From an uncultured Eubacteriales bacterium (GTDB lineage: Bacteria; Bacillota; Clostridia; Oscillospirales; Ruminococcaceae), in NCBI GenBank assembly GCA_900314975.1, contig OMXI01000009.1, positions 1 through 58,215 on the forward strand: a DNA stretch of 58,215 bases. Reading direction: 5' to 3'. A program made the translations under genes and the position numbers. Below, piece by piece: positions 19,191 to 36,786 of the stretch. How positions within the stretch are numbered: the first letter of the stretch is position 1; every line of letters starts with the position of its first letter. The notes beneath the pieces were generated by a model, which was not told the DNA's origin, did no database searches, and saw nothing but the letters and a program-made list of their open reading frames with translations.

Positions 19191-21806
19191 TTACAGATAA
19201 GTAGTAAGCTCTTTGATAAAGCTCCTAAGCTCATCATCAGACAGCTCATCAATATTGGTTTTTCTCAATCTGTCGATAACAATTGTATCGTTTATTTTTT
19301 CAAAAGACACCTGCTCGGCATCTGCCTTCTGCACAGCAAGCTTTGCCTTTTTATTTTCTTCTTCAAGCTCCGCAAGGAGCGATTTTGCACGGTTTATTAT
19401 TTTATCTGGTATACCTGCAAGCTTTGCTACCTCTATGCCGTAGCTTTCATCAACTCCGCCCGGAACTATTTTACGCAAAAACCTTATTGTATCGCCTTGT
19501 CGTTTGCATGCAACAGAGAAATTTCTCACTCCCACAAGCTCGTTTTCAAGGCTGATAAGCTCATGATAATGGGTAGCAAACAAGGTTTTACAGCCAAGTG
19601 AACGTGATGTAGAGATATACTCCGATACAGCCTTTGCGATAGAAATACCGTCAAAGGTAGATGTACCGCGTCCGACCTCGTCAAGAATAACCAGGCTGTT
19701 TTTGGTTGCGTGCTTAACGATATCGGCGACCTCCGCCATTTCGACCATAAAGGTCGACTGCCCTGCCGTAAGGTCATCAGATGCGCCAATTCTGGTGAAT
19801 ATCTGATCAACTACAGAGATTTTTGCATAGTCAGCAGGCACAAAGCTTCCTATCTGCGCCATAAGGGTTATAAGCGCTACCTGGCGCATATAGGTCGATT
19901 TACCCGACATATTCGGACCTGTGATAACAGCCATACGGTTGCTTGTTAGGTCAAGATATGTATTATTCGGCACAAACACCTCGTCCTTTTGCATAAGCTC
20001 AACAACAGGGTGCCTGCCGTTTTTGATGTCAATTACACCGTCGATTGCGATCTCGGGCTTTGTATAGTTGTTGTTTATCGCAACACTTGCGAAAGAACAA
20101 AGCACGTCTATCTCGGCAACTGCCGATGCAGTTTCCTGAACAAGACGAAGCTGTGTAGCAACAAAGTCCCTTATCTCGTTGAAAATCTCCTGTTCAAGCG
20201 TGATTATCTTATCGCTTGCACCAAGTATCGTATTCTCGGCGACTTTGAGTTCCTCGGTAATAAAGCGTTCGCAGTTGGCAAGCGTCTGCTTTCTGATATA
20301 AGTCTGCGGTACAAGGTCATAGAATGACTTTGTTACCTCGATATAGTATCCGAAAACTCGGTTATATCCTATTTTGAGGTTCTTGATGCCCGTTTTTTCC
20401 TTTTCTCTCTCGCAGATATCGTCTATGATATCCTTGCCGCCTGAGCGAATATTGCGCAGACCGTCCAGCTGTTCGTTAAAGCCGTCCTTGATGACACCGC
20501 CGTCCTTGACATTTATAGGCGGTTCATCAACGACAGCATTTTCTATAAGATTTGAAATTGCTTCAAGTGTTGATATCCTGCTGTTGCAGTCGCTTATCAG
20601 CTTTGCATCAAACTCTTTGAGCATATCCTTTAGAATTGGGAGTTTCAGTGCGGTCAGAGACAAGGATTTAAGATCTCTCGGTGAAGCGGTCTTGTACATT
20701 ACCCTTGTCATAAGCCTTTCAAGATCATAAACACCGTTGAGGACTTCTTTTATCTCTCCGAGCATCACAGGGTTTTCAACAAACTGCTCGACCGCATTGA
20801 GCCTGTTAAGTATCTTTGCAGGGTTAATAAGAGGCTGTTCAAGCCAGGCTTTAAGCATACGCTTGCCCATTGAGGTTTTTGTTGAGTCGATTACCCACAG
20901 CAGTGAACCTTTTTTCTCTTTATTGCGAAGAGTTTCGGTAAGCTCAAGGTTGCGCCTTGCTGTAAAGCCGATAGTCATTACAGGGTCAACATCGTGCCTG
21001 GTTATCTTTGAAAATCTTCCGACAAGTGCCTTCTGGGTTTCGTGAATATAGGCAAACAGTCCGCAGACTGCCTTTGCACTGACTTTTTCGGGGTCGATAC
21101 CTATTTCGGAAAGGCTGTTTACGCTGAACTGTTTTAACACGTCCTCGGTGTGATACTTGACCGAGAATTCCATTTCTTCAAGCAGCTGTACAGAGGCTTT
21201 GAGCTTTTCGCGTATAAACTTTGAAAGCTCTTTGTTTGAGAGAAAAGCATCATTGATAAGGATCTCCGACGGTTCAAACCTGGACAGCTCGTTTATCGCT
21301 TCATTGGTCATCTGCTTTCCCGAGAACTCAAACAAATGCACCTCGCCTGTGGAGATGTCGGCAAAGCACAAGGCATTCTGCTTATCCTGCGAATAGAACG
21401 AGCAGATGTAGTTATTTGATGTTTCATCAAGCATACTGCTCTCGATAAGTGTACCCGGGGTAACAACCCTTATTACCTCGCGAGGAACGATACCTTTGCA
21501 CTGCGCAGGGTCCATTGTCTGCTCGCAAATTGCAACCATAAAGCCTTTATCGATCAGCTTTTTGATATAAAGGTCGCAGGCATGGTGAGGAACGCCGCAC
21601 ATTGGCGCGCGCTCTTTAAGCCCACAGTCTCTGCCGGTAAGAGTGAGTTCAAGCTCCCTCGACGCAGTTATAGCGTCATCAAAAAACATTTCGTAAAAGT
21701 CTCCGAGCCTGTAAAACAGGATATGGTTCTTATACTTCTTCTTGACCTCAAAATACTGCTGCATCATAGGCGAAAGCTTTGATACATCAACATCTTTAAA
21801 CAGCAA
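19191..21806 (-). CDS. mutS: DNA mismatch repair protein MutS
   Basis: MutS, 871 aa, recognises base mismatches and small loops. The N-terminal mismatch-binding domain has the Phe-X-Glu signature as LGDFYEMFFDDA (F37-Y-E). The ABC-type ATPase has Walker A GPNMSGKSTYMRQ, the signature region ASDDLTAGQSTFMVEM and Walker B LVILDEVGRGTSTFDG. Length is usual. The start is a TTG with GGAG 9 nt upstream. It belongs to the miaB-ylbF-mutS-mutL-miaA-hfq transcript, so mismatch repair and A37 tRNA modification are co-expressed. Confidence 0.97.
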   Translation of the reverse strand: MLFKDVDVSKLSPMMQQYFEVKKKYKNHILFYRLGDFYEMFFDDAITASRELELTLTGRDCGLKERAPMCGVPHHACDLYIKKLIDKGFMVAICEQTMDPAQCKGIVPREVIRVVTPGTLIESSMLDETSNNYICSFYSQDKQNALCFADISTGEVHLFEFSGKQMTNEAINELSRFEPSEILINDAFLSNKELSKFIREKLKASVQLLEEMEFSVKYHTEDVLKQFSVNSLSEIGIDPEKVSAKAVCGLFAYIHETQKALVGRFSKITRHDVDPVMTIGFTARRNLELTETLRNKEKKGSLLWVIDSTKTSMGKRMLKAWLEQPLINPAKILNRLNAVEQFVENPVMLGEIKEVLNGVYDLERLMTRVMYKTASPRDLKSLSLTALKLPILKDMLKEFDAKLISDCNSRISTLEAISNLIENAVVDEPPINVKDGGVIKDGFNEQLDGLRNIRSGGKDIIDDICEREKEKTGIKNLKIGYNRVFGYYIEVTKSFYDLVPQTYIRKQTLANCERFITEELKVAENTILGASDKIITLEQEIFNEIRDFVATQLRLVQETASAVAEIDVLCSFASVAINNNYTKPEIAIDGVIDIKNGRHPVVELMQKDEVFVPNNTYLDLTSNRMAVITGPNMSGKSTYMRQVALITLMAQIGSFVPADYAKISVVDQIFTRIGASDDLTAGQSTFMVEMAEVADIVKHATKNSLVILDEVGRGTSTFDGISIAKAVSEYISTSRSLGCKTLFATHYHELISLENELVGVRNFSVACKRQGDTIRFLRKIVPGGVDESYGIEVAKLAGIPDKIINRAKSLLAELEEENKKAKLAVQKADAEQVSFEKINDTIVIDRLRKTNIDELSDDELRSFIKELTTYL

Positions 21807-32382: not shown

Positions 32383-35300
32383 TTAGAAAAGAGTTAGCTG
32401 GTTCTGCTTTGGCAGGTCACCAAAAGCGCCGTTTCTGTCCAGAGCCTCGACAACAGACTTAGGAACTCCGCTTTGGATCTGGAACTCCTCAACCGAGATA
32501 AATCCCTTATCCTGCGCCTTTTCATAGATAAGATTTGCCGCATTTTCACCTACGCCGTTAAGTGAACAGAACGGAAGTCTGATTTTTCCGTCCTCTATCT
32601 GATAGATGAAGGCATGTGATTTATAAATATCAACGGGCAGAAATTCATATCCTCTTGACAGCATTTCGTTTGCGATAAGAAGCATATCGCGGACATCTTC
32701 GTCCTTCTTGGTTTTTTCAGCCTTTGGTTTAGCCTCGATTTCCTGTATTTTAGAACGGACAAGGTACATTCCCTTCATAACAGTCTCGGCATCAAAATCT
32801 TCACCGCGCACTGTAAACAGAGTTGCATAAAAGCAGAGCGGGTCGTGTACTTTGAACCAGCAAAGTCTTATCGCCGCGATAACATATGCCGCCGCGTGAG
32901 CTTTCGGGAACATATACTTTATCTTCAGACAGCTATCTATGTACCACTCGGGGACATCATGCGCGCGCATTTCGTTTTTCATATCCTCTGTCAGCAGTTT
33001 CGGCGCATTACCCTTACGGGTTATCTCCATTATCTTGAACGAAAGGCTCTTGTCAACGCCGTGATAGATAAGGTACGTCATAATGCTGTCACGTGTACCG
33101 ATAACATTTGAAATATCGCATATACCTGCTTCGATAAGGTCTTTTGCGTTGCCAAGCCAAACGTCTGTACCGTGAGAAAGTCCTGATATCTGCAAGAGGT
33201 CGGAAAAATTCTTCGGCTTTGCATCAAGAAGCATCTGACATACAAATTTTGTACCCATTTCGGGTATACCGAGTGTTCCTGTTCTGCAGAAGATATCATC
33301 TGGTGTAACACCCAGAACCTCGGGTGACGTGAACAGCTTATATACGTCAGGGTCGGACATAGGAACCTTGGTTATATCCTTACCGCTGAACTGTTCAAGG
33401 TATTTATACATAGTCGGAACATCGTGTCCAAGCTCGTCGAGCTTAAGAATGGTATCGTGCAGAGAATGGAAGTCAAAGTGCGTGGTAACCATATCGGAAT
33501 CAACTTTTTCTGCAGGGTGCTGGACAGGTGTGAAATCGTATACCTCGTAGTCGCTCGGAATAACGACCATTCCGCCCGGGTGCTGTGAGGTGGTGCGCTT
33601 GATTCCGCAGCAGCCTATCTTCAAGCGCTCTATCTCTGCCTTTGGCAAAGTCTTTCCGCGCTCGTCAAGATACTTCATAACATAGCCGTATGCGGTATTC
33701 TCCTGAACGCCGCTGATAGTACCTGCTTTGAAAACGTGATCTTCACCGAAAAGCTGCTCGGTATACTTATGTGCCTTTGCCTGATAATCGCCCGAAAAGT
33801 TAAGGTCAATATCAGGCGCTTTGTCGCCGTGGAAACCGAGGAAGGTCTCAAACGGAATATCGTGACCGTCTCTTGAAAGCTCTTCACCGCAGTTTGGACA
33901 GTTCTTTGGCGGAAGATCAAAGCCAGAGCCGACCGAGCCGTCTGTTATAAACTCACTGTATCTGCATTTGGGACACACGTAATGCGGCTCAAGCGGATTG
34001 ACCTCTGAAATACCCGACATTGAGGCAACGAAAGAAGAACCGACCGAACCACGCGAGCCGACCTGGTAGCCGTTCTCGTTTGAGTTAGCAACAAGCTTTT
34101 GCGAGATCATATAAAGTACTGCAAAACCGTGTTTTATAATAGAGTCAAGCTCTCTTTCAAGTCTGTCAAAAACGATTGGCGGGATATGCCCCTTGTAGAA
34201 CTCGCTGATGTGTTCAAGCTGTCCGTCACCAAGCTCGCTCTCCGGTGGGACGATAATTTCATCGGGGTCACAGTCTCCGTAAATGCTCAGGCATCTTCTC
34301 CAGCAAATGACCTGAAGCTCGTAGACGGCACCCTCGATAAACGGCGTATATGTGCCGTTGGGGAATGCTTTAAGGTCGGGGTCGACCATATCGGCTACCC
34401 TGTTTGGATTGGTTACAACGACCTCAAAAGCCTTATCCTCGCCAAGATAAGAGAACTCGTCAAGCATTTGCTGTGTAGTTTTGAAATACAGCGGCGCCTG
34501 CTGGTCAGCATCGGCAAAACCCTGTCCAGCCATTATAATCGCTCTGAACTGGGCATCGGACTTGTCCATAAAATGAACGTCACCTGTTGCACATACAGGT
34601 ATTCCTAACTCTTCGCCGAGTTTGCATACAGCTCTGTTGAAATCTCTTAAATCCTCGTAAGAGCCAACATCACCCTTGCGAAGCATAAACTCGTTATTGC
34701 CTATCGGCTGTATCTCAAGGTAGTCATAAAACGAAGCTATCTGTTTGATTTTCTCCCACGGGTCTTTATTTACGATTGCTCTGAACACCTCGCCCTGCTC
34801 GCAGGCAGAGCCGACGATCAAGCCCTCACGCAGCTTTACAAGCTCAGATTTAGGAATAAGAGGACGCTTTTTATAGTATTTAAGGTTTGAATATGAAATC
34901 AGCTTATAAAGATTTTTAAGTCCTGTATTATTGCGCACAAGGATAATCTGGTGGTAACGCTTGAGATTTCTTACATCTTCGGGGTTTTCGTTTGCAAGCA
35001 GACTGTTGAGCATATCAACGCTTAAAACTATCAGCGGATACTGTTTGATAAGCACTGTACAGAAATGTATGAACATTTCCGCTGCAAGCTGTGCGCCCTC
35101 AAGACCTTTAGCGGCGATTTCAGACATCTGCTTATGTGAAAGAACAGTTTCAATCTTCAGGTTATTCAGACCGTCAAGCATAAGTCTGCACATTTCGGAA
35201 AGCTTGACATAAGAGTAATCAAAAGAGATATTACAGCTTTTCAGCAGCGAGTCAAGCAGTGTTTTTGAGTTTGTGCCGTCGTAGAAAACAAGCACCGCGC

Positions 35301-36786
35301 CGCTTGTGCAGAACTGGGCAAATTTATTTGCACTGGAAACAGCATCGTCCGCAGCATCACATTCAAAGCTATCGCTGACCTGCATATCCTTGATTTTGAC
35401 AGCAGTTATTCGGGATATCGTTTTGCTGCCGTTTTCATTATCGGCGGTATCGAAATGAACGGCTATAAACTCTTCATCAAGCTCACGCTTGTCCCAGCCA
35501 ACAAAAACCGATGCTTCGTTATTGACCTCGTAGTCCTCAACTCCGTAAATAATCTTGAAATCTCCGCCGCCTTTTCGTATCTTATTGCACGCATTACCTG
35601 CATCGGTATATGCCTGTACAACGCCGTGGTCTGTAATGGCGACAGCCTTATGACCCCAATCAAACGCACGCTGAACGAGCTTGCCTGCGGGAGTCATTGC
35701 ATCAAGCTGTGACATATTGGTATGCAGATGAAGCTCGACACGCTTATGCTCGCAGGTGTCCTTTGACGGTTCCCTTTTAACAAGCATTATAGAATCAGGC
35801 GAAAGATTGAAGGTGTGGTCGTAATCATTCTCCTCCATCTTACCCGAAACTATTACGGTCTTGCCTTTTTTCATCTGTTCAAGGATAGCTTCAAGAACAG
35901 CCTTTGTAAGCGGATTGCTCCTGTATGCTTTCACAGCACCTTTCATCTGGATAGAAACAGACGATGTGTAATCGGTAATAAATATGGTCGCGATAAGCAT
36001 ACCGTTTTTGGTTTCTCTTGTTTCAACACTAAAGACGTCGCCCCAGACTGTAACATCACCGACAAAATCGGGCGCTATATCCTTCATCTCGGTGACCTTT
36101 GTCTGCGGGTCTATCGGCGAGCCTTTAAGCACGGGAGCATTATCGCAAAGCAGATGCAGTCTTGTAAAATCAACAGTGCAGGTGCGGAACTCAACATTCT
36201 CCCCCGTTGACTTATCCTCTTTTTTAAATACATTTTCAGGCTTGCCGCTCGGTGACTGCGGTATGGGAAGATTCGCGAGAAATTCCATTTGTTCGCGCTC
36301 GTACGCTTCCCTGTCAGTTTCAAGCACACCGTCAAAGGTTATATTGACCTTGCGTGAGAACATTTCCTCAACAAGTGCAGAGAGCTTTTTAGCCGCACCG
36401 TTCTTTTTAAGCAAATCGTATCCGCCGTGCTTGAGCAAAATCTTGACATTATCCTCGTCTATCTCCGCCTGCGCACCGTTAAAGAATCCGTTTACGAGCG
36501 GAAATCTGTCTTTGAAAAAGCGGAATATCTCGGTGAAGTATTCTGCTGAAAGCATATCGGGCGTATATTTGCACTTGATCTCAAAAATCTGCGCACCGAG
36601 TGCTTTTTTCATAAAAGCACAAAACTGCTCGATTTCATCGTACTTGACATATCTTTCAAAAGCAGCAACAATGCAAAGGTCAGAGTTATCTCTGCCTGTT
36701 ATGATTTTCAGTATTTTTCCGCCTGCAAGTGCCGCAGGCATTTCAACTTCAAACTGCGAAAACAGTTCTTCAAATGTGTTGTTCAT
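32383..36786 (-). CDS. polC: DNA polymerase III, PolC type, with degenerate exonuclease domain
   Basis: PolC, 1467 aa, is the leading replicative polymerase of low-GC Gram-positives. Domains: N-terminal region (1-200), OB fold (about 235-340), PHP domain split in two (ELHLHTNMSQLDAMT at 351, then ATGDVHFMDKSD near 733), an embedded exonuclease region (about 438-570), then the polymerase with its aspartates in PDIDLNFSG (D992, D994), a zinc finger (CPKC ... CPNC) and the GSRGSVGSS block. The C-terminus QNQLTLF is a sliding-clamp binding motif. The exonuclease motifs are lost: DxE reads D446-T-A448, the second motif (HNASFD in Bacillus) reads YDGTNS, and the third (HRAIYD) has no His or Asp. 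AAAGGA precedes the ATG. It ends the der-polC gene row. Confidence 0.96.
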   Translation of the reverse strand: MNNTFEELFSQFEVEMPAALAGGKILKIITGRDNSDLCIVAAFERYVKYDEIEQFCAFMKKALGAQIFEIKCKYTPDMLSAEYFTEIFRFFKDRFPLVNGFFNGAQAEIDEDNVKILLKHGGYDLLKKNGAAKKLSALVEEMFSRKVNITFDGVLETDREAYEREQMEFLANLPIPQSPSGKPENVFKKEDKSTGENVEFRTCTVDFTRLHLLCDNAPVLKGSPIDPQTKVTEMKDIAPDFVGDVTVWGDVFSVETRETKNGMLIATIFITDYTSSVSIQMKGAVKAYRSNPLTKAVLEAILEQMKKGKTVIVSGKMEENDYDHTFNLSPDSIMLVKREPSKDTCEHKRVELHLHTNMSQLDAMTPAGKLVQRAFDWGHKAVAITDHGVVQAYTDAGNACNKIRKGGGDFKIIYGVEDYEVNNEASVFVGWDKRELDEEFIAVHFDTADNENGSKTISRITAVKIKDMQVSDSFECDAADDAVSSANKFAQFCTSGAVLVFYDGTNSKTLLDSLLKSCNISFDYSYVKLSEMCRLMLDGLNNLKIETVLSHKQMSEIAAKGLEGAQLAAEMFIHFCTVLIKQYPLIVLSVDMLNSLLANENPEDVRNLKRYHQIILVRNNTGLKNLYKLISYSNLKYYKKRPLIPKSELVKLREGLIVGSACEQGEVFRAIVNKDPWEKIKQIASFYDYLEIQPIGNNEFMLRKGDVGSYEDLRDFNRAVCKLGEELGIPVCATGDVHFMDKSDAQFRAIIMAGQGFADADQQAPLYFKTTQQMLDEFSYLGEDKAFEVVVTNPNRVADMVDPDLKAFPNGTYTPFIEGAVYELQVICWRRCLSIYGDCDPDEIIVPPESELGDGQLEHISEFYKGHIPPIVFDRLERELDSIIKHGFAVLYMISQKLVANSNENGYQVGSRGSVGSSFVASMSGISEVNPLEPHYVCPKCRYSEFITDGSVGSGFDLPPKNCPNCGEELSRDGHDIPFETFLGFHGDKAPDIDLNFSGDYQAKAHKYTEQLFGEDHVFKAGTISGVQENTAYGYVMKYLDERGKTLPKAEIERLKIGCCGIKRTTSQHPGGMVVIPSDYEVYDFTPVQHPAEKVDSDMVTTHFDFHSLHDTILKLDELGHDVPTMYKYLEQFSGKDITKVPMSDPDVYKLFTSPEVLGVTPDDIFCRTGTLGIPEMGTKFVCQMLLDAKPKNFSDLLQISGLSHGTDVWLGNAKDLIEAGICDISNVIGTRDSIMTYLIYHGVDKSLSFKIMEITRKGNAPKLLTEDMKNEMRAHDVPEWYIDSCLKIKYMFPKAHAAAYVIAAIRLCWFKVHDPLCFYATLFTVRGEDFDAETVMKGMYLVRSKIQEIEAKPKAEKTKKDEDVRDMLLIANEMLSRGYEFLPVDIYKSHAFIYQIEDGKIRLPFCSLNGVGENAANLIYEKAQDKGFISVEEFQIQSGVPKSVVEALDRNGAFGDLPKQNQLTLF

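What the first reader, a model, noticed from the sequence alone, without database searches (positions are those of the whole stretch)
35077..35475. PolC with an apparently dead proofreading exonuclease
The 3'-5' exonuclease embedded in the PHP domain has lost all recognisable DEDD motifs. The DxE motif (FDxETTG in Bacillus PolC) reads F-D-T-A, confirmed in the DNA at 35443-35451. The second motif (HNASFD) reads YDGTNS, so the catalytic Asp aligns with Ser. The third (HRAIYD) has no His or Asp. The segment is also shorter than in Bacillus by an estimated 25-50 residues. Flanking PHP, polymerase and clamp motifs are intact and the frame is open, so this is domain decay inside an essential gene, not a sequencing error. 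Either proofreading is done by a separate DnaQ-like protein, or mismatch repair (mutSL, also in this window) carries a larger load. I cannot tell whether this has been described.
Basis: partly seen in the sequence, partly recalled or inferred. Interest (0 to 1): 0.8.

Follow-up and report, generated by a model that had tools for sequence, protein, structure and literature searches.

The report
DNA copier with a dead proofreader
In one branch of the gut bacterium Ruminococcus the main DNA-copying enzyme still carries its built-in proofreading domain, but that domain has lost its cutting site while still being preserved by selection, so the cell must proofread another way or do without.

Summary
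Confirmed. The DnaQ-type (DEDDh) exonuclease inside PolC (window 32383-36786, minus strand) has lost all five catalytic residues. The same state occurs in seven genomes forming one clade of Ruminococcus; 38 of 38 intact PolCs in the comparison keep D-E-D-H-D. The remnant is homologous over 186 of 188 columns, keeps 171-176 aa after one shared deletion, and is under relaxed but clear purifying selection (dN/dS 0.13-0.32 in five pairs, against about 0.05 for intact exo). It is a retained pseudo-exonuclease rather than free decay.

The stand-alone DnaQ-like gene is missing in 2 of 7 clade genomes and truncated in this one. MutS is present, which proves nothing. Most likely rescue: the PHP nuclease site, complete in 40 of 40 exo-dead or exo-less PolCs where it could be read. 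That is untested and not discriminating, since intact PolCs have it too.

Exo-less PolC in Clostridia was reported in 2013. A retained dead domain, found here in a second family too, I did not find described.

The parts
32383..36786 (-). polC, replicative DNA polymerase III alpha subunit, PolC type, 1467 aa
34969..35496 (-). Exo insert (residues 431-606, bounds approximate): catalytically dead remnant of the DEDDh exonuclease domain
35455..35457 (-). codon 444, His in place of the first catalytic Asp
35449..35451 (-). codon 446, Asp in place of the catalytic Glu
35266..35268 (-). codon 507, Ser in place of the HNxxFD catalytic Asp
35110..35112 (-). codon 559, Ala at the catalytic His position (alignment uncertain by one or two columns here)
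35095..35097 (-). codon 564, Gly in place of the last catalytic Asp
35497..35742 (-). N-terminal part of the PHP domain (bounds approximate), ligands H353 H355 D362 H387 E417 intact
34537..34968 (-). C-terminal part of the PHP domain (bounds approximate), ligands H612 C662 D736 H738 intact
32917..34215 (-). polymerase core (bounds approximate), catalytic D992 and D994 intact
32386..32403 (-). C-terminal NQLTLF, clamp-binding motif (motif name recalled, not from a call)
   Evidence: read
19191..21806 (-). mutS, 871 aa
17144..19171 (-). mutL, 675 aa

Best explanation
In the ancestor of one Ruminococcus clade the DEDDh exonuclease of PolC lost its active site once, with a deletion of about 22 aa that removes the conserved LTxIT segment. 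The lineage tolerated this because Clostridia carry a second nuclease site, PHP, with a complete metal-binding signature in both PolC and DnaE1; PHP (helped by mismatch repair) now does what proofreading there is. The dead domain persists as a folded, non-catalytic insert because it interrupts PHP and must still fold, or because it makes contacts in the replisome. Shown: loss of the catalytic residues, single origin, retained homology, purifying selection, intact PHP ligands, no stand-alone DnaQ conserved in the clade. Inferred: that PHP is an active proofreader, that the remnant is folded, and that it has a structural role.
For: Catalytic set lost in 7 of 7, kept in 38 of 38. One clade, SH-aLRT 100. 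Remnant homologous over 186 of 188 columns, E 8e-41. dN/dS (NG86) 0.133, 0.163, 0.225 in the three clade pairs with the least saturated dS, bootstrap pN/pS intervals all under 0.58; 0.29 and 0.32 in two further, more saturated pairs. PHP HHDHEHCDH in every dead or exo-less PolC where the site could be read: 7 dead and 7 gone, 19 gone, 7 of family f38. DnaE1 PHP site intact in the 20 rows that I read by eye, 7 of them from the dead clade. Complete exo loss recurs in other Clostridia with PHP ligands intact. 17 of the 25 genomes seen to have an exo-less PolC and searched have no RNase_T match at E 0.1 or better: 12 of 19 and 5 of 6. Two of the 7 dead-clade genomes have none either.
Against: The PHP signature is equally intact in intact PolCs (56 of 56 rows that cover it), so it does not discriminate. 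The G. kaustophilus PolC PHP, with 8 of 9 ligands, showed no exonuclease activity (PMC3666897, passages). The stand-alone DnaQ homologue is commoner in the dead clade (5 of 7) than in intact congeners (3 of 20, plus fragments in 2), which favours the rival. In other clades the whole domain was deleted, so it is not needed for the fold of PolC in general. No structure could be predicted.
Confidence: 0.6

Rival explanations
1. A separate DnaQ-like exonuclease (about 178 aa; gene in contig C42 of this genome, locus L001) proofreads in trans, so the built-in domain became redundant.
For: Full-length relatives in 5 of 7 dead-clade genomes against 3 of 20 intact congeners, with fragments in two more intact ones; catalytic motifs present in the copies shown; in this genome it is the only RNase_T match.
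Against: Absent from G021 and G022 (each 90% complete, sister lineages), which have no RNase_T match at E 0.1. Present in some intact species and in G008, whose PolC was not found. The copy in this genome ends about 20 residues early. Second copies in G006 and G017 look truncated or altered at the end. The proteins are 158-190 residues, little more than the nuclease core.
Confidence: 0.15
2. No replacement exists: the clade replicates with little or no proofreading and leans on MutS/MutL, i.e. a lineage-wide mild mutator.
For: mutS and mutL are in the window; MutS in 42 of 42 genomes searched. B. subtilis expressing a proofreading-deficient polC allele is used as a conditional hypermutator (PMC11890065, passages).
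Against: No longer branches in the clade: PolC mean 0.317 (n=7) against 0.384 (n=16, range 0.152-0.507) in the sister group; ispG+rseP 0.309 (n=7) against 0.284 (n=14). These are protein branch lengths and only a weak measure of mutation rate; the second is slightly higher in the clade.
Confidence: 0.15
3. The domain kept or regained catalysis with residues outside the DEDDh positions.
For: Purifying selection on the remnant; three Cys invariant in the clade, residues 493, 533, 576.
Against: Only one acidic residue of the aligned remnant is invariant in the 7 rows (E11 of the alignment, before motif I), which is too few for a two-metal site. Cys493 and Cys576 are also common in intact rows, 31 of 34 and 12 of 38.
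Confidence: 0.03
4. Sequencing or assembly artefact.
For: Several of the genomes are metagenome assemblies (record titles).
Against: Seven separate genomes, open frames, one clade, same deletion.
Confidence: 0.01

Closest known systems
PolC variants that lack the Exo insertion (Timinskas et al., PMC3919608; passages)
   Same: PolC without a DnaQ-type exonuclease, in Clostridia, paired with DnaE1, PHP ligands conserved
   Different: There the insert is absent; here it is present, homologous and under selection, but catalytically dead
PolA2/APEX and many Pol I with an inactivated 3'-5' exonuclease (described in PMC12926913; passages)
   Same: A polymerase that keeps a dead DnaQ-like domain
   Different: Family A, DEDDy; here the family C replicase, DEDDh. 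[quoted passage not shown]
E. coli DnaE with dead PHP (PMC3666897; passages)
   Same: A nuclease domain of the replicase that lost catalysis but stayed as a structural element
   Different: Mirror image: there PHP is dead and epsilon active; here the DnaQ-type domain is dead and PHP apparently intact
Canonical PolC exonuclease (solved: 2p1j, 9qpc)
   Same: Same family by sequence: the only solved structure that the dead-clade profile matches significantly is 2p1j, E 3e-5
   Different: The catalytic set is missing here

Membership tests
PolC-type DNA polymerase III alpha | NCBIfam equivalog over cut-off | tested here: met
   TIGR01405 1297.8 bits, cut-off 1043.45; NF001688 1437.8, cut-off 873
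PolC-type DNA polymerase III alpha | catalytic Asp pair of the polymerase | tested here: met
   D992, D994
DEDDh (DnaQ/RNase_T) exonuclease, active | five residues D, E, D, H, D | tested here: not met
   H, D, S, A, G in the window; none of 7 clade rows keeps more than one
DEDDh (DnaQ/RNase_T) domain, by descent | full-length homology to intact PolC exo | tested here: met
   186 of 188 columns, P 100, E 8e-41
Exo-lacking PolC (Timinskas 2013) | no Exo insertion in PHP | tested here: not met
   176-residue insert retained; true lacking forms found elsewhere
PHP with active-type signature | HHDHEH[C/H]DH (signature from PMC12926913, passage) | tested here: met
   HHDHEHCDH
PHP proofreading exonuclease | measured 3'-5' exonuclease activity | not testable with these tools
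   needs protein

The most novel reading that the evidence does not exclude
The dead exonuclease of PolC has been turned into a non-catalytic module of the replisome, independently in two lineages. In the second lineage (f38/g150) it has gained a conserved acidic insert of roughly 60-100 residues and, in the one pair that could be measured, evolves at dN/dS 0.08, not far from the polymerase itself (0.05). In such cells the PHP site would be the main proofreader of the replicase, and in those without any RNase_T protein the only one.
Probability: 0.3. Interest if true: 0.75.

Novelty: new variant of a known kind. Interest (0 to 1): 0.55.

Why it matters
It gives natural strains in which the textbook proofreader of the Gram-positive replicase is switched off but still in place, beside close relatives where its residues are intact and others where it is deleted. 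That makes two open questions testable: whether PHP really proofreads in living Firmicutes, and what a dead nuclease domain does in a replisome. It is also a counter-example to the published generalisation that in Pol III alpha subunits PHP, not DnaQ, is what gets inactivated.

Tried and rejected

Pfam scan of the seven remnants: only 1 of 7 still gives a weak RNase_T match, E 0.00086, so single-sequence domain tools would mostly miss the domain.

Mutator signal from branch lengths: none, but the test is weak. Synonymous sites are near saturation between species.

Direct profile comparison of the f38 insert with the Ruminococcus exo: only 30-38 columns, probability 13-30%. It becomes clear only through the intact relative G601 (probability 98.9, 210 columns; BLASTP E 1e-16 to 5e-8 in 7 of 7). 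The BLAST E-values there are for a set of seven sequences.

dN/dS: YN00 and ML failed or gave absurd dS for some saturated pairs. I quote NG86: three clade pairs, five intact pairs and one f38 pair; two further clade pairs (window/L033 0.29, L032/L033 0.32). Two other f38 pairs were saturated.

Papers: searches; searches returned no paper. I saw passages of seven papers and no whole paper. None of these passages reports a retained dead exo domain in a cellular PolC. The library holds only open-licence papers.

Rows dropped: two short PolC rows before the alignment (L027, L059); five partial rows before the tree (L025, L047, L028, L031, L057).
Full report
WHAT IS THERE. The window lies in a 2.92 Mb genome, G000, 98.5% complete. 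The search tool places it in a genus (g1) whose PolC loci coincide with records named Ruminococcus, R. bicirculans among them. The gene at 32383-36786 (minus) encodes PolC, 1467 aa. PHP, polymerase, fingers and helix-hairpin-helix domains are recognised; RNase_T is not.

THE EXO DOMAIN. I aligned the window PolC with relatives from named records and from unnamed congeners: 46 distinct rows, two short rows dropped. Two congeners, G008 and G027, gave no PolC match, only DnaE. Seven rows (window, L032/G020, L033/G028, L034/G022, L006/G006, L007/G017, L008/G021) have lost the FDxETTG, HNxxFD and HHRxxDD motifs. L056 lacks the insert. The other 38 have all five catalytic residues. In the seven, the five positions read HDSAG, HDAAG, DDAAK, DGN-G, SSIGG, SSMKG and SKC-E, in the order just given. 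The alignment around the third motif is uncertain by a column or two, but no His followed five residues later by Asp occurs there in any of the seven (read).

A SINGLE EVENT. A tree of PHP plus polymerase columns, with the exo columns left out, puts the seven in one clade with SH-aLRT 100; 52 rows, quick method, five partial rows dropped. Its place as sister of the R. bicirculans group is weak (support 80). All seven share a deletion between motif I and motif II: insert 171-176 aa against 192-198.

RELAXED BUT NOT FREE. At polymerase identities of 84-93%, exo identity within the clade is 29-68%; intact pairs in the bins from 84 to 92% show 67-84%, those from 92 to 96% show 76-92%. One clade pair, window/L032 with 68%, lies at the lower edge of the intact range; the pair L006/L007 (polymerase 96.7%) has 75% against 91-98% in its bin. 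dN/dS (NG86) of the remnant is 0.133, 0.163 and 0.225 in three clade pairs and 0.29 and 0.32 in two more saturated ones. Intact exo gives 0.048-0.064 in five pairs and the polymerase 0.014-0.054 in the same eight pairs. Bootstrap pN/pS intervals of the remnant span 0.19-0.57, below 1. Of 38 columns that are 95% or more conserved in intact rows, 4 are kept in at least 6 of 7 dead rows (A, F, F, N), none of them catalytic. Profile comparison with intact exo covers 186 of 188 columns. By sequence the domain is still a DnaQ-type homologue without its active site. The fold itself was not modelled.

WHO PROOFREADS? (a) PHP: nine ligands read HHDHEHCDH in the window and in all 56 rows that cover them (one partial row does not). 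By eye, the DnaE1 PHP site is intact in 20 of 20 rows, seven from the clade. In G. kaustophilus PolC, which has Asn at position 8, PHP showed no exonuclease activity (PMC3666897, passages); here position 8 is Asp. [quoted passage not shown] Losing one of three may therefore be survivable. (b) A stand-alone DnaQ: five of seven clade genomes have one or more full-length relatives; so do three of 20 intact congeners, two more having fragments; G021 and G022 have none. The copy in G000 ends about 20 residues before its relatives. (c) Mismatch repair: mutS and mutL are in the window; MutS was found in 42 of 42 genomes, a set of 41 chosen as dead or exo-less and one intact, so no contrast. (d) Rates: mean root-to-tip distance is 0.317 (n=7) against 0.384 (n=16) for PolC and 0.309 (n=7) against 0.284 (n=14) for ispG+rseP. 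No lasting mutator signature, by a weak test.

WIDER SURVEY. Family: 248 genomes of 90% or more completeness; PolC core found in 242 at 1e-100; intact-exo profile matched at 1e-15 in 234. I inspected 16 outliers. Six have no PolC match at 1e-20. Four are cut by contig ends (G079, G085, G162, G266); the part of G085 that is present has motifs II and III intact. Six (G081, G153, G201, G237, G119, G129) have PolC with the insert cleanly missing: 60-66 residues where the window has 236. On the tree the exo-less rows, L056 included, need three changes, at least two by starred branches. Class: 392 genomes of 95% or more completeness; 338 match at 1e-10, 54 do not, of which only 20 were listed. I inspected those 20 plus the 10 weakest matches other than the window's genome. 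Three lack a PolC match at 1e-60. Nineteen, in six families, have lost the insert, with PHP HHDHEHCDH in 19 of 19. Eight, all in family f38, keep a long insert. The other 34 non-matching genomes were not listed and not seen. These counts describe outliers that I picked, not frequencies.

A SECOND RETAINED DEAD DOMAIN. In f38, G601 (genus g291) has an intact-type exo in PolC. Six g150 genomes and one g287 genome, whose PHP and insert I read in full, have an insert homologous to it (BLASTP E 1e-16 to 5e-8, 7 of 7; profile probability 98.9). Read from the alignment, both catalytic Asp of motifs I and II and the motif III His are gone in 7 of 7; the motif I Glu survives in G592 and G630; motif III of G592 aligns poorly. 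PHP is complete in 7 of 7. The eighth, G316, I saw only in part. In the six g150 rows the insert has grown to 289-323 aa, against 227 in G601 and 217 in G592, with a shared acidic segment. In the one pair with usable dS its dN/dS is 0.084 against 0.047 for the polymerase. All 16 f38 genomes searched have RNase_T matches outside PolC, so there the trans-DnaQ rival is stronger.

NO DnaQ AT ALL. Of 25 genomes seen to have an exo-less PolC and searched (19, 6), 17 have no RNase_T match at E 0.1 or better. G266, of the same genus as four of them but with the exo region not assembled, has none either. Two more have only weak matches: G390 (E 0.0099, under the cut-off) and G271 (E 0.049, over the cut-off with its neighbours in the frame). 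In the 17, PHP is the only candidate proofreader that I know of.

KNOWN OR NEW? Timinskas et al. (PMC3919608, passages) reported that 6% of PolCs lack the Exo insertion, with one exception in Clostridia and Negativicutes. [quoted passage not shown] The retained dead domain is a counter-example. I found no paper describing one. I rate it a new variant of a known kind.

Noticed in passing
L001:1486-1962 (G000 contig C42): Stand-alone DnaQ-like gene whose C-terminal end is cut short just before an AT-rich repeat-like stretch; a 17-base piece of that stretch has no match in the window with up to 2 mismatches.
   Followed up: partly
L212-L219 (family f38): In genus g150 the dead exo of PolC carries a shared acidic insert (around EGES, DID.SLW, LRDENI) of unknown role.
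   Followed up: partly
G076, G149 (genus g49), G033, G049, G186, G235; G301, G325, G486: Nine genomes with no PolC match at 1e-20 (six) or 1e-60 (three); two are only 0.7-0.8 Mb. Possibly PolC-less, incomplete or strongly diverged.
   Followed up: no
L135 (G129, genus g18): PolC without exo, also short at the N-terminus (open frame 1150 aa, match starts at query residue 202), while another g18 genome, G045, has a strong intact-exo match.
   Followed up: no
window residues 493, 533, 576 of PolC: Three Cys invariant in the seven dead exo domains; Cys533 is Ser in 33 of 38 intact rows.
   Followed up: no
L182 (G630), L185 (G374): polC frames interrupted by one stop codon in the matched stretch; assembly error or real not settled.
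   Followed up: no
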